This document shows positions 4,593-20,160 of a stretch of 20,160 nt of DNA, one piece after another. The DNA comes from a virus. Numbering within the stretch: the first letter of the stretch is position 1; every line of letters starts with the position of its first letter. The translations under genes and the position numbers were made by a program. The notes under the pieces are model-generated. The model was not told the DNA's origin, did not search any database, and was given only the letters and a program-made list of their open reading frames with translations. The stretch spans positions 1 through 20,160 of the IMG/VR virus record IMGVR_UViG_3300020477_001931; one strand, given 5' to 3'.

Positions 4593-4771
4593 TGTGACCG
4601 GTTTGGTCGTGCCTGATGTGGCCACCATTCTGGCCACCGCTTTGCCCCGCAGGGCGAGTGGTACGGGCACCGTTTAACCACGACCGGCCAGCGTCCCGGC
4701 TGACCGACTGCGGCCAGTGTACAGGCCCAATCTCAGCACCTGGAGGGAAAAATAATGCTGATCCAGAAAAA

Positions 4772-4795
4772 AACTTAACTCGTGATAATTAAGTT
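4772..4795. promoter_or_regulatory. AT-rich inverted repeat, candidate operator
   Basis: AACTTAA (4772-4778) and TTAAGTT (4789-4795) are perfect inverted arms around a ten-base centre. The stretch is much more AT-rich than its surroundings and lies about 140 bases upstream of the first gene of the rightward array. A dimeric repressor site or promoter-associated operator fits this form. No confident -35/-10 pair could be assigned. Confidence 0.4.
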
Positions 4796-4885
4796 ACTTA
4801 CGTTACAGTGAGACACAGTAATTCCAACAAAATGCTAACTTTACGCTGTACATCCTGACGACAGGACACTAGGGTCACTTTCACC

Positions 4886-4931
4886 GGGGGGCAAAGCCTG
4901 CCCCCCACAAACCCAGACGAGGAGTTGAGAC
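4886..4931 (+). promoter_or_regulatory. Leader hairpin plus start box of array gene 1
   Basis: GGGGGGCA (4886-4893) and TGCCCCCC (4899-4906) form a perfect eight-base stem with loop AAGCC. Fifteen bases later comes the box GGAGTTGAGAC (4921-4931), directly followed by the ATG at 4932. No U tract follows, so this is not an obvious terminator. It is the first copy of the hairpin-plus-box arrangement that precedes every gene in this array. Confidence 0.65.
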
Positions 4932-5297
4932 ATGCTGACAACCGAACCGACCACGCTGCGAAATGGGGCGACTGTGCTGGCCCGCCATCCGAGTAAATCA
5001 CTGGGCTGCGGAGACGTGGTCTTGTGCCAGAGTGGTGCCGAGTTTGTGACGTGGGTCTTGGATTCAGAAGGGCACGCACACTGGGGCCACTATCACCCGA
5101 CGCGGTCTTTCACCGACCAGCCCAACCCGGTCAAGGCAGCCCTACAGCGGGCCGTGGGTGATTTCCTCGACCGAATTGTGGAGCCGAGCAACAAAGAGCA
5201 AACAGCAGAAATCATGTTGCGACACCTCTACAAGCCTGTAGAAGTCGCGGACAAAATCATCTCCGAGATGAGGGATACTGACACAACCCAATCCTGA
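4932..5297 (+). CDS. Hypothetical array protein 1
   Basis: The 121-residue protein is unrecognised. The N-terminal half has strand-like segments (NGATVLARHP, GDVVLCQSG, FVTWVLDSEGHAHWGHY). The C-terminal half is helical (VKAALQRAVGDFLDRIV, and AEIMLRHLYKPVEVADKII). There is no signal peptide or membrane segment. The start is certain because ATG 4932 directly follows the array's GGAGTTGAGAC box. It is the first of seven plus-strand genes that share this box and probably one transcript. The order suggests accessory (host takeover or lysogeny) genes, but the sequence gives no function. Confidence 0.8.
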   Translation: MLTTEPTTLRNGATVLARHPSKSLGCGDVVLCQSGAEFVTWVLDSEGHAHWGHYHPTRSFTDQPNPVKAALQRAVGDFLDRIVEPSNKEQTAEIMLRHLYKPVEVADKIISEMRDTDTTQS

Positions 5298-5389
5298 GCC
5301 GAAACGCCCCACACGGGGCTTCGCGGGGATCCGGCCTACCCCGCCTGATGAGGCAGGCCATTCACTGACCCTGATGAGGAGTTGAGACC
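5298..5389 (+). repeat. Array intergenic element B (diverged copy)
   Basis: This spacer of 92 bases holds three possible stems: GCCCC/GGGGC (5306-5319, loop ACAC), GCGGGG/CCCCGC (5323-5344), and GCCTG/CAGGC just after it. It ends with GGAGTTGAGACC (5378-5389) before ATG 5390. The box is identical to other copies, but the hairpin part has no clear sequence identity with them. It is best seen as a distant member or a functional analogue. Confidence 0.55.
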
Positions 5390-5878
5390 ATGAGTGAGAA
5401 CCAGACACCACCAGAATTCACCAGCTTTGAAATAGGAGCGCGTGCAGAATTCATGCAGTCCGACGGCACACGCTATTTCCTTGATGCAAATGCAAATGAT
5501 CTGCGCAGGGAACCCATTGCGGAGTGGACTGAGGCCCGGGCAGACCTCTTGCTCACGACGCACCACACCATCTCGGGACTCACGGATGAGGGCGGGGTCT
5601 GTAGGCTGTTTGAGTTACAGACTGAAGCATACGCCCGTGAGGTTCTCGGGACGCTGTCTGTAGGGGACGACGGGGCGACAATCTTGATTGAGTCCTACGG
5701 CGAGCTTTTGGAGACCGCTGACGCACTCGGATGGGACTCTGAGTCGCAAGAACACGACTGCGGCTACAAGAGAGATGAGGAAGGCGAGTGGTCTGATTCG
5801 GCAGCCGACGCGCTCGAAGAGGCTGCGGAAGAGTACATCCAATCACGTGGATTGAAGGTTGTCTACGAGGAGGACTGA
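5390..5878 (+). CDS. Hypothetical acidic array protein 2
   Basis: The 162-residue protein is strongly acidic, especially in its C-terminal 60 residues (DSESQEHDCG, EEGEWSDSAADALEEAAEEY, then VVYEED at the end). No family is recognised. The high negative charge is seen in DNA-mimic proteins and other phage inhibitors of host nucleic-acid-binding enzymes, but charge alone does not establish that role. The start follows the array box GGAGTTGAGACC. No membrane segment or Cys cluster is visible. It lies in the probable polycistronic rightward array. Confidence 0.8.
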   Translation: MSENQTPPEFTSFEIGARAEFMQSDGTRYFLDANANDLRREPIAEWTEARADLLLTTHHTISGLTDEGGVCRLFELQTEAYAREVLGTLSVGDDGATILIESYGELLETADALGWDSESQEHDCGYKRDEEGEWSDSAADALEEAAEEYIQSRGLKVVYEED

Positions 5879-5971
5879 GGACCCCCAACCGCGCACACCT
5901 GGAATTGGGTGTGCCGGATTGGTGGCCCTTTTGAGGCTGATTTTTGAAACCCCGAGATAAGGAGTTGAGAC
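5879..5971 (+). repeat. Array intergenic element C, structured repeat
   Basis: The 93-base spacer shows the common plan. It starts with GGACCCCC (5879-5886) right after the stop. The inner stem is GCACACC (5893-5899) with GGTGTGC (5908-5914). An unpaired CGGATT follows, then the outer right arm GGTGGCCC (5921-5928), then an AT-rich tail and the box GGAGTTGAGAC (5961-5971) before ATG 5972. The inner stem sequence differs from those of the neighbouring copies while pairing is kept. Confidence 0.72.
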
Positions 5972-6322
5972 ATGGGACGGTTGGACCAGGTTATGGAAAG
6001 AGTGCGGAACTCTTTTGTTGGTGAGTGCAAAATTGAGGTCACAATTGCGGACACAAAGACAAACAGAGAGGGAGAGTTGGCCTATCAAGAGGGCCATTTT
6101 GCCTACCAGTTGCACAATTTTTTCCGAATGAGGCTGCGTCAGATTGTCGAGCCGCCAGAAGAGTGGTCGTCAAAAGATCTCTGCGAACTGCTGAGGGGAC
6201 TCGACGAGATAAAGACTCACCTGAGCGGGTACCGTCAGCGTGTGCAGGAACGGTATGACGAATTGCTACTCGAAGAGATCATTGAAAGCCGTGTGGAGGA
6301 GGCTTTGCGAGACGCCAACTAA
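5972..6322 (+). CDS. Hypothetical array protein 3
   Basis: The 116-residue protein is mostly helical and charged, and of unknown family. The N-terminus (MGRLDQVMERVRNSF) looks amphipathic. The C-terminal half (LRGLDEIKTHLSGYRQRV, then YDELLLEEIIESRVEEAL) suggests a short coiled coil. The last codons, GACGCCAACTAA, are identical to those of the next gene, so the downstream repeat extends back into the coding end. The start follows the box GGAGTTGAGAC. No catalytic motif is visible. Confidence 0.8.
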   Translation: MGRLDQVMERVRNSFVGECKIEVTIADTKTNREGELAYQEGHFAYQLHNFFRMRLRQIVEPPEEWSSKDLCELLRGLDEIKTHLSGYRQRVQERYDELLLEEIIESRVEEALRDAN

Positions 6323-6409
6323 GGACCGTCCCCCGCCGCTCCTGGCCCTCAGGAGCGTCGGATTGACGGCCCTTGGCCATTTACCCGAGACCTTGAAGGA
6401 GTTGAGACT
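6323..6409 (+). repeat. Array intergenic element D, 87-base structured repeat
   Basis: Outer arms GGACCGTC (6323-6330) and GACGGCCC (6365-6372) pair with one mismatch. They enclose the perfect inner stem GCTCCTG (6338-6344) / CAGGAGC (6350-6356) with loop GCCCT. CGGATT lies unpaired after the inner stem. The tail contains CCTTGGCCATTTACCCGAGA and the box GGAGTTGAGACT (6398-6409). Length (87) and layout equal those of elements E and F. Identity with E continues upstream into the last four codons of the preceding gene. Confidence 0.8.
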
Positions 6410-6766
6410 ATGAGTAAGAAACTGACGTGGAAGCGGACAAATGACGCCGGGCAAACCGAGTCCCACTGTGGCCGGTTCTGGTTTGTTTACACAGACCTCA
6501 GTGTATTTGAAATGTCTGAGCACAACCTTTGTTGCGACGACGCCGCTGATGGTTCCTCCCTCTTCATCCGACTGTGGCACGCAGACACCGGCGTGATTGT
6601 GGGCCACTACGCGACCAAGTCCGAGGCCAAGGCGGCAGCAGAGAAGCACCTCGCCGGGTTTGCTGAAGAGGTGCGGCAATTGCGTCACCGGGTCGTGGAC
6701 CTGGAGGACGCAGTCGAGGAACACGAGGAGGACTGGGAGTCCTTGACCGCCACAGACGCCAACTAA
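6410..6766 (+). CDS. Hypothetical array protein 4
   Basis: The 118-residue protein has a probable N-terminal alpha/beta part with three Cys residues (SHCGRFWFV, EHNLCCDDAADG). A segment DTGVIVGHYATKSEAKAAAE follows, and then a charged coiled coil (about residues 85-110: EEVRQLRHRVVDLEDAVEEH). No family is recognised. The start is set by the box GGAGTTGAGACT. The ending GACGCCAACTAA is shared with the previous gene and belongs to the repeat that follows both. The function is unknown. Confidence 0.8.
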   Translation: MSKKLTWKRTNDAGQTESHCGRFWFVYTDLSVFEMSEHNLCCDDAADGSSLFIRLWHADTGVIVGHYATKSEAKAAAEKHLAGFAEEVRQLRHRVVDLEDAVEEHEEDWESLTATDAN

Positions 6767-6853
6767 GGACCGCCCCCCGCCGCACCTGGTCCGCCGGGTG
6801 CGTCGGATTGGCGGCCCTTGGCCATTACCCGAGACTTTGAAGGAGTTGAGACC
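6767..6853 (+). repeat. Array intergenic element E, 87-base structured repeat
   Basis: It is nearly the same as element D. Outer arms GGACCGCC (6767-6774) and GGCGGCCC (6810-6817) carry a T-A to C-G paired change relative to D. The inner stem GCACCTGG (6782-6789) / CCGGGTGC (6794-6801) has one G-U pair and a different sequence from D. CGGATT is again unpaired, and GGAGTTGAGACC (6842-6853) precedes ATG 6854. Paired changes suggest selection on RNA or single-stranded DNA structure. Confidence 0.82.
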
Positions 6854-7183
6854 ATGACTTTTGCGACACCACACGACAACCACGGGGCTTTTGAAACAAA
6901 CCCCAAGCCAGCCGGACTAACATTCCCCGGCGACGAGCGAGCCTGTTGGACAACGCCCGGTCTCTACGTCACCCGGTTGCGTCTGCTGTCTGATCCGGGG
7001 TTTCCGGCATGGGACGTTAGCTATTGCTGGGGCGAGTTGGATGGTCGGCCAGTGCAGGTGATTCTGCCCTTCAGCCAGCTTCCCAAACGTGGAGTCACTC
7101 GGCGGATCATCTCATGGGCCAAGCACGACGGTGTCTACGCAAAAGCCTTGGGGATTCTGGACAACATTAGTTGCTGCTGTTGA
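6854..7183 (+). CDS. Hypothetical array protein 5
   Basis: The 109-residue protein is unrecognised. It is rich in strand-like segments (GLYVTRLRLLSD, WDVSYCWGELDGRPVQVILP) and ends with a Cys run (SCCC), which could bind a metal or be modified. The RGVTRRIISWAKHDGVYAKALG stretch is basic and helical. An upstream ATG at 6818 is in frame, but it lies inside the repeated spacer, so the start at 6854, immediately after GGAGTTGAGACC, is preferred. It is followed at once by another 87-base spacer. Confidence 0.78.
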   Translation: MTFATPHDNHGAFETNPKPAGLTFPGDERACWTTPGLYVTRLRLLSDPGFPAWDVSYCWGELDGRPVQVILPFSQLPKRGVTRRIISWAKHDGVYAKALGILDNISCCC

Positions 7184-7270
7184 GGACCCCCACCCGTGTC
7201 CACCCCGCAGCGGGGTGGGCCGCCGTGGCGGCCCTTAGGCCATTACCCGAAACCCCATGGAGTTGAGACC
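7184..7270 (+). repeat. Array intergenic element F, 87-base structured repeat
   Basis: This is the third spacer of exactly 87 bases. The inner stem is CCACCCCG (7200-7207) / CGGGGTGG (7211-7218), different in sequence from D and E but strong. GGCGGCCCTTAGGCCATT and ACCCGA are shared with D and E. The box GGAGTTGAGACC (7259-7270) precedes ATG 7271. The outer GGACCCCC arm pairs less well with its partner than in D or E. Confidence 0.76.
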
Positions 7271-7348
7271 ATGACCATCTTTTACGTTTGCTACAGCATA
7301 CTCGCCGCCTTCATCCTTGAAGCCTGGGCGAGCCGGAGTTCAAAATGA
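7271..7348 (+). CDS. 25-residue membrane peptide, possible leader peptide
   Basis: The short frame MTIFYVCYSILAAFILEAW continues to a basic end, ASRSSK. A single hydrophobic segment covers about residues 3-19. It begins exactly after a perfect copy of the array box GGAGTTGAGACC, which is the strongest evidence that it is translated. It sits 115 bases upstream of the serine recombinase, and its last codons include CCGGAGTT, which can pair with the downstream sequence that could mask the recombinase start. It may be a small membrane protein, a leader peptide, or both. A type I toxin-like peptide is a further possibility without direct evidence. Confidence 0.68.
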   Translation: MTIFYVCYSILAAFILEAWASRSSK

Positions 7349-7463
7349 TTCAAGGACAGCCAGCGGCAGCGGCTGGGGAGCTAGCTCAAGAGTTGGGGCC
7401 AATCTCAACTCCGGCCCCCTCTCGAGTCGCTGGCTGTCCGTTTTCCCCGAGAGGAGTTGAGAT
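7349..7463 (+). promoter_or_regulatory. Structured leader of the serine recombinase with start-box complement
   Basis: GGACAGCCAGCG (7354-7365) and CGCTGGCTGTCC (7428-7439) form a perfect 12-base stem, followed by GTTTTCC. Inside lies ATCTCAACTCC (7402-7412), an exact 11-base complement of the recombinase start box GGAGTTGAGAT (7453-7463). The same segment can instead pair with GAGTTG just upstream (7391-7396 region) or, as AACTCCGG (7407-7414), with CCGGAGTT (7333-7340) at the end of the leader peptide gene. These exclusive pairings resemble a translational attenuator. An alternative view is a weak intrinsic terminator with four U residues. Confidence 0.68.
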
Positions 7464-8237
7464 ATGACCGTCAAGTGGACAACAAAAGTGGTGAGCTATC
7501 AGCGGTTTTCTGACCGCCGCAATGCTGACCAGTGCGAGTCAAATGAGGCCCAGCGGGATTTCATCAAGGAGTTCTGTGACGAGAAGGGCTGGCAAATTGT
7601 CGAGAGCTTTTCCGACGAGCGGAAGTCTGGTCGCGGCAAGCAGAACGCAACCAACCGAGACGAGTTGGACCGGCCTGGACTCTGGGCTGCGGTGGACGCA
7701 ATCAAGCCGGGCTACACGCTGGTCGCGTGGCGACCTGACCGCATTGCTCGCGACGTGTTCCTCGACGAGCTGGTGCGTCGGCAGGTCGAGAAGGCCGGTG
7801 GCCGAGTGGTCACCGTGCTGGCCAACGTCGAGGGCGACACGCCTGAGGCCAGCATGATGCGGACTATCCTCGCTGCGTTCTCGCAATACGAGCGAGACGT
7901 GATCAGCGTCCGCACGTCTGCGGCCATGCAGCGGCATCAGGCCAACGGGCGGCGCATGACCAGTTTCCGGTCTGTTCCCTACGGCTTCCGGCCTTGCCCT
8001 CGCGACCTGACCCTGATGGAGGAGGACCCTGAAGAGCAGGCCATCATTGATGTGATCATTGATATGTTCCGCACCAAGCACCCAATCAAGGATATTGTCC
8101 GCCACCTGGAGGATATGGAGACGCCAACCCGTGCCGGCAATGGCATATGGTATCCGCAGGCCGTCCGACGCATCCTCAAGCGTGCTGGCGAGTACCTGAC
8201 TCCGGCGGAGCGCAAGGAGCGTGACGCCAAGGTCTAA
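7464..8237 (+). CDS. Serine recombinase (resolvase/invertase-type catalytic domain)
   Basis: The 257-residue product is a site-specific serine recombinase. The catalytic Ser is S16 in YQRFSDRRN. Other landmarks are NEAQRD (27-32), WRPDRIARD (89-97, active-site Arg residues), and YERDVISVRT (142-151, the start of the long helix). PYGFR (172-176) marks the beginning of the recombinase DNA-binding domain. It is shorter than large serine integrases (usually about 450-600 residues) and lacks the zinc ribbon and coiled coil. It closes the rightward array and ends just before an intrinsic terminator. A separate tyrosine integrase exists, so this enzyme probably performs another reaction, such as inversion, resolution or cassette exchange. 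Confidence 0.9.
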   Translation: MTVKWTTKVVSYQRFSDRRNADQCESNEAQRDFIKEFCDEKGWQIVESFSDERKSGRGKQNATNRDELDRPGLWAAVDAIKPGYTLVAWRPDRIARDVFLDELVRRQVEKAGGRVVTVLANVEGDTPEASMMRTILAAFSQYERDVISVRTSAAMQRHQANGRRMTSFRSVPYGFRPCPRDLTLMEEDPEEQAIIDVIIDMFRTKHPIKDIVRHLEDMETPTRAGNGIWYPQAVRRILKRAGEYLTPAERKERDAKV

Positions 8238-8253
8238 CAGGCGAGCCGCGCCG

Positions 8254-8283
8254 AACCGGGGTCAGCAATGGCCCCGGTTTTTT
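8254..8283 (+). terminator. Intrinsic terminator of the rightward array
   Basis: AACCGGGG (8254-8261) and CCCCGGTT (8272-8279) pair around a ten-base loop and lead into six T residues (8278-8283). It starts 16 bases after the recombinase stop. The opposite strand lacks a T run after the stem, so it serves the plus strand. It overlaps the stop codon region of the convergent metallophosphoesterase gene. Confidence 0.88.
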
Positions 8284-9151
8284 ATTGCGCCCATGTAATG
8301 TCATAGCAAACCTGGGCCAGCTTGTTGTGCCACCAGAACCTGAGCCAAGCCGCCCCAATGGGTTTCGGCGGCGCACCCCGCTCGACGTGCCAGCCACCGT
8401 ACCCGTCACCGTATTCCTCTTTGTACGTCGGGACCACGACGTGTGTCTGGGTGTCGTGGTAGACCTTGCCGCCGGAGTTGATACGCACCCGTTGCAGGTC
8501 CAGGGTCCAACGCTCGTGGATGTGGCCACTCACGACCAGGTGGGCGTCGGGCAGATATGTGGCTCGCCGGTTGGTCTGGATAACCCCCTTGGTGACCGGG
8601 CCACCGCCGCCGTAGCCATGCGAATAGTTGAGCAGGACCGCCTTGGTGGCACCGCTGCCACCCCAGTCGAAGAGGAACCGCACCCAGCCACCGTACCCGC
8701 CGCAGCAGATGTTGCTGCCCGTCCGGTCATTCAGTATCCCGACCAGCCGCTCGGTCAGATGTGTCTCGTGCCGTTTGCGAATAGCCTCTTCATGATTGCC
8801 GACTCCCAGCACAATCATGTTCTTAGTCCACGGCTCGAAGAAGTCAGCCGCCGTGCCGACCAGTGCGTCAAGGTAGCTGTCCACCTGATGCTCCGGTCTC
8901 ACATCAGACTTGCTGGACCTCTTGTCATACTTGCCCTGCATAGCACAGAACAGGTCACCAATGTCTATCACCCCAGCGTTCCGTTTGACGGCCTCCTCCA
9001 GGTGGTCCTTTTGCAGGTCGTGGTTGCTCTTCGGGTTGTCCCAATGGCGGTCACCGGAGAGCAGAAACCACTGCTCCCAGTCGTTACGTCGCGAGCCATC
9101 CACCCGTACCTGGATGACATTGCGGCCCTGTTTTTCTACCTTCCAGGTCAC
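8282..9151 (-). CDS. Calcineurin-like metallophosphoesterase
   Basis: The 289-residue product has the ordered metal-binding motifs of this superfamily: GDRHWDN (about 33-39), IGDLF (64-68), GNHEE (118-122), YSHGYG, and SGHIHERW near the C-terminal third. Enzymes of this type cleave phosphodiester or phosphomonoester bonds using two metal ions. Phage members can process nucleic acids or nucleotides, but the substrate here is unknown. I choose GTG at 9151 because it overlaps the upstream stop as GTGA, with GGAGG seven bases before it. A longer frame to 9211 lies inside the previous gene. It is the last gene of the minus operon. Confidence 0.88.
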   Translation of the reverse strand: MTWKVEKQGRNVIQVRVDGSRRNDWEQWFLLSGDRHWDNPKSNHDLQKDHLEEAVKRNAGVIDIGDLFCAMQGKYDKRSSKSDVRPEHQVDSYLDALVGTAADFFEPWTKNMIVLGVGNHEEAIRKRHETHLTERLVGILNDRTGSNICCGGYGGWVRFLFDWGGSGATKAVLLNYSHGYGGGGPVTKGVIQTNRRATYLPDAHLVVSGHIHERWTLDLQRVRINSGGKVYHDTQTHVVVPTYKEEYGDGYGGWHVERGAPPKPIGAAWLRFWWHNKLAQVCYDITWAQ

Positions 9152-18892: not shown

Positions 18893-18920
18893 AAAAGTGT
18901 GGTCACCTGACCACACTTTT
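18893..18920. repeat. Inverted arm-site pair overlapping the integrase leader
   Basis: AAAAGTGTGGTCA and TGACCACACTTTT are perfect 13-base arms separated by CC. Each half is the arm motif found three times left of the core. The right half ends four bases before the integrase ribosome site (GGAG), so bound integrase could also reduce its own expression. Confidence 0.8.
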
Positions 18921-18936
18921 GAAAGGAGAGTCTGCT

Positions 18937-20160
18937 ATGCGTATTCCAGAACTCAAGAAACACACCTCCGGCCGAGCATTCGTCCGCGTCCAAAAAAACG
19001 GAACGCGGAAGGATTACTATTTCGGGGTGCACGGCACTCCCGAGGCCGAGACCAAATACAAGCAGTGGCTCGCTCGCCACATGGCTGGCATTCCTCACCC
19101 CGAGGATGAGACCTGCGGCAAGAAGGTCGCCCAGGTCGTCTCATTCTACCTCGACTGGATTCACGACGAGGGGCTGGTCTCCGAGGGGGAGCACTACCAG
19201 ATCCGGCACACCCTTGACGTTGTGTGCGAGCACTACGGCTCGCTGCCGGTCGAGAAGTTTTCAGCCGAGGAACTGAGCGACCTGCGAAAAGTTTTCCAGT
19301 CGCGGTACACCCACAGAACCGCCACCCAGAAACTCGGCCGCATCAAGAAGATGTTCCGAAAGTGCCTGGAGAAAAAGAAGAGCACTGGCGTGACTGGCGA
19401 GCAGGTCAACGAGCTGCTCCTGGTCGAGGGCGTCCACAAGGACAAGCCCGGCGTCAGGAACAGTCGCGAGGTTCCGGCTGTGGCCTGGACCGAGGCGAGC
19501 AAGCTGATGCCCTTCCTGTCACCAGTGGTCTCGGCATTGTGCAAGGTGCAATTCCTTTGCGGCCTACGGCCAACCGAGGCTTGCGTCATGACGCTCGACC
19601 AGATGGACACCAGCGGTGACATCTGGACCTACCAGCCCGACCAGCAGAAGACCGGCCACCGTGGCTGGAAGCCAGCGTCGGCTGTGCCGCCGGTAGCCCA
19701 GAAGATTCTTGAACCGTTCCTCGACCGAGCACCCAGTGAGTTCCTGTTCAAGCCGGCAGAGGCTGTTGCGTGGAAGATGGCTCGCGACTCGTACTATCGC
19801 ACCACCAAGGTGTACCCGAGCGAGGTCAAGCGGGTGCAAGCGGCGAGGAAGAAACGCAAGGCCCGTGGCGTGAAGCGGGCGGAGCACTACACCGCCAGCA
19901 CCTACGGTGGTGCCTTGAAGCACGGCTTCCGAGCCGCCGAGGAGGCTGGCCTGACGCTGGAACGCTGGTCACCCAACCAACTGCGTCACGGTATAGCCAC
20001 GCTCGTCGCCCACCAGCCGGGGCTGGGCCAAGAAGCGGCCCAGGCGTACCTCGGGCACGCTCACCTCTCGACGACTCAGGTCTACGTCGAGAAACAAAAG
20101 AGCAAGGTCATCAGCGTGGCCACGGAGCTGGAGCCACTGCTGGCCGAGCTGGTCACATAA
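18937..20160 (+). CDS. int: Tyrosine recombinase, phage integrase
   Basis: The 407-residue product integrates and excises the phage at attP/attB. An N-terminal arm-binding-type region (RAFVRVQKNGTRKDYYFG) and a SAM-like core-binding domain (about 60-150) precede the catalytic domain. Catalytic residues are R211 in FLCGLRPTEA, a Lys in QKTGHRGW (about 238), R350 and H351 in PNQLRHGIAT, H374 in LGHAHLSTT, and Y383 in VYVEK. The usual first His of HxxR is Asn, as I recall from planctomycete integrases. ATG 18937 follows GGAGAG. The gene ends on the last base of the window and lies directly beside the arm repeats it probably binds. Confidence 0.93.
   Translation: MRIPELKKHTSGRAFVRVQKNGTRKDYYFGVHGTPEAETKYKQWLARHMAGIPHPEDETCGKKVAQVVSFYLDWIHDEGLVSEGEHYQIRHTLDVVCEHYGSLPVEKFSAEELSDLRKVFQSRYTHRTATQKLGRIKKMFRKCLEKKKSTGVTGEQVNELLLVEGVHKDKPGVRNSREVPAVAWTEASKLMPFLSPVVSALCKVQFLCGLRPTEACVMTLDQMDTSGDIWTYQPDQQKTGHRGWKPASAVPPVAQKILEPFLDRAPSEFLFKPAEAVAWKMARDSYYRTTKVYPSEVKRVQAARKKRKARGVKRAEHYTASTYGGALKHGFRAAEEAGLTLERWSPNQLRHGIATLVAHQPGLGQEAAQAYLGHAHLSTTQVYVEKQKSKVISVATELEPLLAELVT

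What the first reader, a model, noticed from the sequence alone, without database searches (positions are those of the whole stretch)
5879..7270. A family of structured intergenic repeats with compensatory base changes
Spacers D, E and F are each exactly 87 bases, and C is 93. They share GGACC at the start, an inner hairpin, CGGATT (C, D and E), GG(C/T)GGCCC, ACCCGA (D-F) and the start box. Inner stems differ in sequence but stay paired: GCTCCTG/CAGGAGC, GCACCTGG/CCGGGTGC, GCACACC/GGTGTGC, CCACCCCG/CGGGGTGG. D and E also show a T-A to C-G paired change in the outer stem. This points to selection on structure in RNA or single-stranded DNA. I do not recognise it as a known RNA family.
Basis: partly seen in the sequence, partly recalled or inferred. 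Interest (0 to 1): 0.86.

Follow-up and report, generated by a model that had tools for sequence, protein, structure and literature searches.

The report
Structured RNA spacers in phage operon
In this uncultured virus a row of small genes is separated by RNA hairpins whose paired bases have changed together, one spacer looks like a self-cutting ribozyme, and every gene begins with the same 'start box', which suggests that the virus cuts or insulates one long message at each gene border and may control all the genes through their shared start signal.

Summary
The repeats are real and their pairing is conserved. Spacers C-F directly follow a stop codon, share one covarying hairpin plan and end in a start box, GGAGTTGAGAC(N)ATG. 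A covariance model from C-F found two more copies in a second, unrelated virus (G001, 74.6 kb). On the six sequences 93.8% of cells pair, 8 of 19 pairs show changes on both sides, and 0 of 500 shuffles reach the covariation score. Planctomycete genomes gave nothing convincing. (1) All seven genes of the + strand operon (4932-8237) carry the box; it is nowhere else in the record. (2) Spacer B (5298-5359) fits a type II hammerhead ribozyme, including its usual pseudoknot, with one flaw. (3) Spacer G shows the complement of its own start box in a hairpin loop; G001 has such a hairpin right after its array. Best reading: intercistronic RNA elements that cut or insulate one long mRNA and standardise translation starts, possibly under antisense control. 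The closest known kind is the SAS/ESAS repeats of mycobacteriophages, whose function is unknown; unlike ESAS, pairing is supported here. Mechanism and host are unproven.

The parts
4886..4931 (+). Spacer A: leader of the first array gene, GC-rich hairpin and start box GGAGTTGAGAC at 4921-4931
   Evidence: Sequence and fold; box by pattern search
5298..5359 (+). Spacer B: type II hammerhead-like element. Stem II 5298-5300/5352-5354, GAAA 5301-5304, stem III 5306-5310/5315-5319, UUC 5320-5322 (predicted cut after 5322), stem I 5323-5328/5339-5344, CUGAUGA 5345-5351, pseudoknot 5333-5337/5355-5359
   Evidence: Rfam RF02276, 35.7 bits, E 5.3e-5 (gathering score 37); coordinates; pseudoknot read from sequence
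5378..5389 (+). Start box of gene 5390-5878 (GGAGTTGAGACC)
5879..5971 (+). Spacer C: two-part hairpin 5877-5932 and start box
6323..6409 (+). Spacer D: two-part hairpin and start box
6767..6853 (+). Spacer E: two-part hairpin and start box
7184..7270 (+). Spacer F: two-part hairpin and start box
7354..7439 (+). Spacer G: branched fold closed by a 14-bp stem (7354-7367/7426-7439)
   Evidence: MFE -55.6, z -3.3
7401..7412 (+). Anti-box loop AATCTCAACTCC of hairpin 7395-7418, complementary to the start boxes; 11 of 11 bases with the box at 7453-7463
7453..7463 (+). Start box (variant GGAGTTGAGAT) of the recombinase gene
4932..8237 (+). Seven-gene operon: starts at 4932, 5390, 5972, 6410, 6854, 7271 and 7464
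   Evidence: ORFs; 7271-7348 read
7464..8237 (+). Serine recombinase, last gene of the array
   Evidence: Pfam PF00239 E 5.4e-26; PHROG 95 integrase
8253..8285 (+). Intrinsic terminator of the operon
   Evidence: 12-pair stem followed by a T run

Best explanation
The spacers are intercistronic RNA elements of one polycistronic viral mRNA (4932-8237). A structure right behind the stop codon (hammerhead-like in B, long two-part hairpins in C-F, a branched fold in G) marks the gene border: it cuts the message (B) or protects and insulates the neighbouring cistrons (C-F). Behind it an almost invariant start box, an extended Shine-Dalgarno sequence, gives every gene the same translation start, so that each cistron is translated independently and at a level that can be set for all together. 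Shown at sequence level: the repeats, covarying pairing, restriction of the box to this operon, recurrence in a second virus, hammerhead architecture of B, the operon terminator. Inferred: cotranscription, cleavage, insulation and the role in translation.
For: Covariation within the window and with the second virus. Structures begin within a few bases of the stop codon. Spacer B matches Hammerhead_II with both core motifs, three stems and the type II pseudoknot (literature). All box matches with up to 3 mismatches in the record are array leaders and 18 other starts lack it. No sigma-70-like promoter in 4700-8300, terminator-like sites at background level, and a good terminator only after the last gene. 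The box contains GGAG at Shine-Dalgarno distance. G001 has the same order of parts, all on one strand; G002 has two such spacers.
Against: No expression data. The hammerhead scores just below the gathering score and has a C-U clash at 15.2/16.2, so it may be inactive. F is not unusually stable for its composition (z -1.35), and several G001 spacers are short or weakly structured. The host is unknown, so host promoters inside the spacers would go unseen. Only two genomes support covariation, and the six-sequence alignment was fitted to the model.
Confidence: 0.55

Rival explanations
1. An antisense regulon: the start box is conserved mainly because a hairpin loop in the same RNA (7401-7412) pairs with it and blocks or times translation, in cis on the recombinase gene and possibly in trans on all seven genes.
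For: Loop and box in spacer G are exact complements over 11 bases, including the variant T of that box. G001 has one exact anti-box on the array strand, in the loop and closing pairs of a 12-bp stem right behind its last gene. Permuted anti-boxes match as well in 42/3000 (window, up to 1 mismatch) and 3/3000 (G001, exact). Duplex energies with all window boxes -15.9 to -17.6, with G001 boxes -12.7 to -23.2 kcal/mol. K1 mycobacteriophages show an anti-SAS in a hairpin loop.
Against: A 12-nt loop may not pair over its whole length. No anti-box with at most 1 mismatch on the array strand of the partial G002 record. Most other SAS phages tested lack it: Pixie, TM4, Boilgate, AnnaSerena, and K6 loops do not match their SAS well.
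Confidence: 0.2
2. Protein binding sites: hairpin and box are bound, as RNA or DNA, by a virus or host regulator, as the authors suggest for ESAS (DNA-binding, possibly promoters).
For: ESAS authors favour DNA binding and later work places putative promoters in ESAS. Conserved unpaired stretches here (GGACC, ACCCGA, box) could be contacts.
Against: For DNA binding, arm sequences should be conserved; here they vary with compensation. No sigma-70-like promoter found.
Confidence: 0.13
3. Recombination borders: the spacers are folded single-stranded recombination sites (attC-like) or homology patches that let small genes be exchanged.
For: Unrelated orphan genes, a recombinase in the array, D and E share their upstream gene ends too (6310-6353 and 6754-6797, 89%), and two unrelated viruses share the spacers.
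Against: No attC core sites: the box reads GTTGAGA where GTTRRRY needs a final pyrimidine, and no matching RYYYAAC-type arm lies at the 5' end (sequence). Homology patches would not need compensatory changes.
Confidence: 0.08
4. Transcription terminators or attenuators between the genes.
For: GC-rich hairpins directly behind stop codons.
Against: No T run behind the hairpins of D, E and F, only CTTTT in C; terminator-like sites are not above shuffles (4 against 3.0) while the operon end has a clear one.
Confidence: 0.04

Closest known systems
SAS and ESAS repeats of Cluster K mycobacteriophages (PMC3203893) and Cluster EF Microbacterium phages (PMC7302621)
   Same: A short asymmetric motif that contains a Shine-Dalgarno core, repeated before many non-structural small genes, with a second repeated element upstream in wide intergenic gaps
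   Different: Sequences unrelated; the upstream element here directly follows the stop codon, has variable but covarying arms and a conserved two-part fold; ESAS arms are conserved in sequence and do not support pairing according to the authors
Type II hammerhead ribozyme (Rfam RF02276; PMC3088659), for spacer B only
   Same: Core CUGAUGA and GAAA, three stems in type II order, loop I-tail pseudoknot; hammerheads between phage genes are known
   Different: C-U clash at position 15.2/16.2 and a score of 35.7 against the cut-off of 37; here it shares its tail and start box with a series of other structured spacers
Antisense RNAs that pair through a hairpin loop with a ribosome binding site (general class, own knowledge)
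   Same: A loop exposes the complement of a ribosome binding site
   Different: One loop matches a box repeated at all genes of the operon and lies inside that operon; no evidence of expression
Integron attC sites (own knowledge)
   Same: Folded, sequence-variable elements between small genes in one orientation
   Different: No core sites; ribosome binding site included; structure tied to the stop codon

Membership tests
SAS/ESAS (Cluster K type) | Repeated asymmetric motif at the ribosome binding site of many genes, more conserved than an RBS needs | tested here: met
   7 of 7 array genes, none elsewhere
SAS/ESAS (Cluster K type) | Motif sequence GGGATAGGAGCCC (K) or GGGAAAGGACCCC (EF) | tested here: not met
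   Box is GGAGTTGAGAC(N)ATG; only the GGAG/AGGA core is shared
SAS/ESAS (Cluster K type) | Upstream 17-bp inverted repeats conserved in sequence, departures not supporting pairing | tested here: not met
   Arms vary and covary
SAS/ESAS (Cluster K type) | Putative promoter inside ESAS | tested here: inconclusive
   No sigma-70-like site, but the host and its promoters are unknown
Type II hammerhead ribozyme (spacer B) | Core CUGANGA and GAAA | tested here: met
   5345-5351 and 5301-5304
Type II hammerhead ribozyme (spacer B) | Three stems, stem II open, loop I-tail pseudoknot | tested here: met
   Stems of 6, 3 and 5 pairs; GGCCT/AGGCC read from sequence
Type II hammerhead ribozyme (spacer B) | Paired 15.2-16.2 next to the NUH triplet | tested here: not met
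   C5305 opposite U5320; marked as non-standard pair
Type II hammerhead ribozyme (spacer B) | Rfam gathering score | tested here: not met
   35.7 against 37 bits; significant by E-value
Type II hammerhead ribozyme (spacer B) | Self-cleavage | not testable with these tools
   Needs an in vitro assay
Integron attC site | Core sites RYYYAAC and GTTRRRY in paired arms | tested here: not met
   Sequence of C-F
Intrinsic terminator | Hairpin followed by a T run | tested here: not met
   met only at 8253-8280
Any Rfam family (C-F) | Covariance model match | tested here: not met
   None at gathering; only weak unrelated matches at E up to 10

The most novel reading that the evidence does not exclude
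A viral operon in which every gene border carries an RNA device (self-cleaving or hairpin) plus a standard start box, with an anti-box hairpin loop in the same RNA able to pair with all boxes: an RNA-only regulon that would also give a testable explanation for the unexplained SAS repeats of actinobacteriophages.
Probability: 0.2. Interest if true: 0.87.

Novelty: new variant of a known kind. Interest (0 to 1): 0.64.

Why it matters
Start-associated repeats have been known in phages since 2011 without a function (PMC3203893; role still called unknown in PMC11373665, 2024). Here the upstream element shows base-pair covariation, one spacer is hammerhead-like, and two genomes carry a hairpin loop complementary to the box. 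That turns 'possible role in translation initiation' into concrete tests: cleavage of spacer B, and compensatory mutations between loop and box. It would also mean that a virus evolved modular gene insulators of the kind that engineers add by hand (ribozyme or hairpin plus a fixed ribosome binding site).

Tried and rejected
Named phages and plasmids: no useful DNA similarity. Exact single boxes in IMG/VR (40, 35 and 113 stretches) look like chance: only G001 has many copies with the right layout. Planctomycete host: 392 genomes with the model and 294 with the box gave only weak or isolated hits that lack the plan on inspection. One scan of all GTDB contigs with ACCCKA-N-box gave 11 isolated hits in unrelated taxa. 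Closest terminase relatives (L005-L009, 85-88% identity) do not reach the array. Array proteins have no close relative in IMG/VR; the recombinase query confirmed none there. attC and terminator readings were rejected (membership test). Anti-SAS as a general rule of SAS phages was rejected: absent in Pixie, TM4, Boilgate and AnnaSerena, diverged in Unicorn and Cain.

Full report
WHAT THE RECORD IS. The window is a whole IMG/VR virus record of 20,160 bases. It has a large terminase gene on the - strand at its left end, a tyrosine integrase at its right end and a Sak4-like ATPase. Nothing similar is in the named phage collection; its closest terminase relatives are viral metagenome fragments at 85-88% identity. 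The host is unknown. Between two blocks of - strand genes lies a + strand operon of seven genes, 4932-8237. The last gene encodes a serine recombinase and is followed by a good intrinsic terminator at 8253-8285. The five longer small genes have no Pfam or PHROG match and no close relative in IMG/VR; the 25-residue product of 7271-7348 was not searched.

THE OBSERVATION. All described features of C-F are in the sequence, with one slip (D has GACGGCCC). The four align with few gaps. For a 23-pair structure 92.2% of cells pair, five pairs have changes on both sides and no shuffle reaches the covariation score; sliding the 3' arm by 1-3 columns drops pairing to 35-50%. The two closest copies, D and E, differ at five stem positions and every change keeps pairing. 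MFE z-scores are -3.4, -2.8, -3.0 and -1.35 for C, D, E and F. Six stem cells are G-U on the + strand; the only A-C mismatch is the invariant column pair 6/53. Most of this favours + strand RNA, although that invariant A-C would be G-U on the other strand.

HOMOLOGUES. A covariance model from C-F (R1) was searched in the loci fetched. One record, G001 (IMGVR_UViG_3300037247_001239, 74,578 bases), has strong matches (36.2 and 29.6 bits). Its only detected gene in common with the window is a distant nuclease-like protein (26% identity). In its array at 14.4-18.8 kb the exact box GGAGTTGAGACNATG occurs four times and near-boxes several more times, and the bipartite motif ACCC(G/T)(A/G)-N-GGAG occurs six times, all on one strand and above control patterns. 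On the six distinct spacers 93.8% of cells pair, 8 of 19 pairs show both-side changes and 0 of 500 shuffles reach the covariation score. That alignment was fitted to the model, which leans towards the structure, but the slid controls are at 39-49%. A third record from the same metagenome, G002 (IMGVR_UViG_3300037247_000468), has two spacers in the same order of parts: TAACCAGACTC, a hairpin of different sequence in each, TGTGTGTTTACCC, box. These two were not tested for covariation and only one has the full box.

THE SERIES IS LONGER. Spacers A, B and G end in the same box. The box precedes all seven genes of the operon; every match with up to three mismatches in the record is one of these leaders, and 18 other predicted starts lack it. 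It contains a Shine-Dalgarno core but is conserved nearly to the start codon, beyond what pairing with 16S rRNA needs.

SPACER B IS HAMMERHEAD-LIKE. 5297-5362 matches Rfam RF02276 (type II hammerhead) at 35.7 bits, just under the gathering score of 37, with E 5e-5 to 8e-5 for the short stretches searched. Both core motifs are intact. Stem I (6 bp), stem II (3 bp) and stem III (5 bp) occur in type II order. The pseudoknot between loop I and the tail, described for a majority of type II hammerheads (PMC3088659), is there: GGCCT 5333-5337 with AGGCC 5355-5359 (read from the sequence). The flaw is C5305 opposite U5320 (15.2/16.2) next to the triplet UUC. The predicted cut is after C5322, 25 nt behind the stop codon. 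The tail AGGCCATT followed by ACCC recurs in F (AGGCCATTACCC) and nearly so in D and E (GGCCATTTACCC, GGCCATTACCC), which ties B to the same series.

ANTI-BOX LOOPS. In spacer G, 7401-7412 (AATCTCAACTCC) is the loop of a GGGGCC/GGCCCC hairpin inside a 14-bp outer stem and the reverse complement of the box of its own spacer over 11 bases. In G001 the only exact complement on the array strand lies in the loop and closing pairs of a 12-bp stem directly behind the last gene of the array. Permutations of the anti-box match as well in 42/3000 (window operon, up to one mismatch) and 3/3000 (G001 array region, exact); the hairpin context was not part of that control. Predicted duplexes with the boxes range from -12.7 to -23.2 kcal/mol.

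COMPARISON WITH SAS/ESAS. The closest known kind is the start-associated sequence and its extended form in Cluster K mycobacteriophages and Cluster EF Microbacterium phages. Layout and genomic setting are alike, sequence is not, and ESAS arms do not support pairing according to the authors. Those authors noted one reversed SAS in each of four K1 phages without explanation. In Anaya and Angelica it lies in the loop of a strong hairpin near the right end; Adephagia, Niklas and Curiosium share it, with stems that differ but stay largely paired. K6 phages keep the hairpin with another pyrimidine-rich loop; TM4, Pixie, Boilgate and AnnaSerena lack an anti-SAS. This is a lead, not proof of a shared mechanism. 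The SAS role was still called unknown in 2024 (PMC11373665).

HOW IT MOST LIKELY WORKS. One transcript probably runs from upstream of 4932 to the terminator at 8253-8285 (inferred from gene strand, lack of sigma-70-like promoters and terminator position). At each border the structure behind the stop codon cuts or insulates, and the box starts the next gene. Translation could be tuned for all genes at once, by ribosome availability or by the anti-box loop. What is shown is sequence-level only; cotranscription, cleavage and regulation are inference. Confidence is 0.55 for intercistronic RNA elements in general and 0.2 for antisense control as the main reason why the box is conserved.

Noticed in passing
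L313:19850-19910 (phage Anaya 59850-59910); L314, L321-L324, L327, L328, L318: Cluster K mycobacteriophages carry a hairpin near the right end with a changing, largely paired stem and a pyrimidine-rich loop; in K1 phages the loop is the complement of the SAS with one mismatch, which may explain the 'reversed SAS' noted in PMC3203893.
   Followed up: partly
window 6310-6322 and 6754-6766: D and E share not only the spacer but also the end of the upstream gene (AGACGCCAACTAA), a footprint of recent duplication or gene conversion of the gene border.
   Followed up: no
window 5334-5359, 5926-5941, 6368-6379, 6812-6823, 7230-7241: B-F all hold GGCC followed by a second GGCC (GGCT in C), able to pair with each other; in C-F this competes with the 3' arm of the outer stem, in B it is the hammerhead pseudoknot. 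A switch between two folds is possible.
   Followed up: no
window 4755-4870: AT-rich leader before the first array gene in an otherwise GC-rich record; likely promoter region of the operon.
   Followed up: no
window 7464-8237 and 18919-20160: A short serine recombinase and a tyrosine integrase occur in the same 20-kb record.
   Followed up: no
L203:1-660: Another virus record (IMGVR_UViG_3300005731_000120) has a repeated leader GGTCAGCTAACTAACATTTAAGGAGTCGAGA before two adjacent small genes, and GGAGTTGAGACGATG before the gene ahead of them: a similar start-box layout without obvious hairpins.
   Followed up: no
L228 - strand, 1151-519: Third array (G002) from the same metagenome as G001: two spacers with shared ends and different hairpins, one before a DUF7249 gene.
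   Followed up: partly
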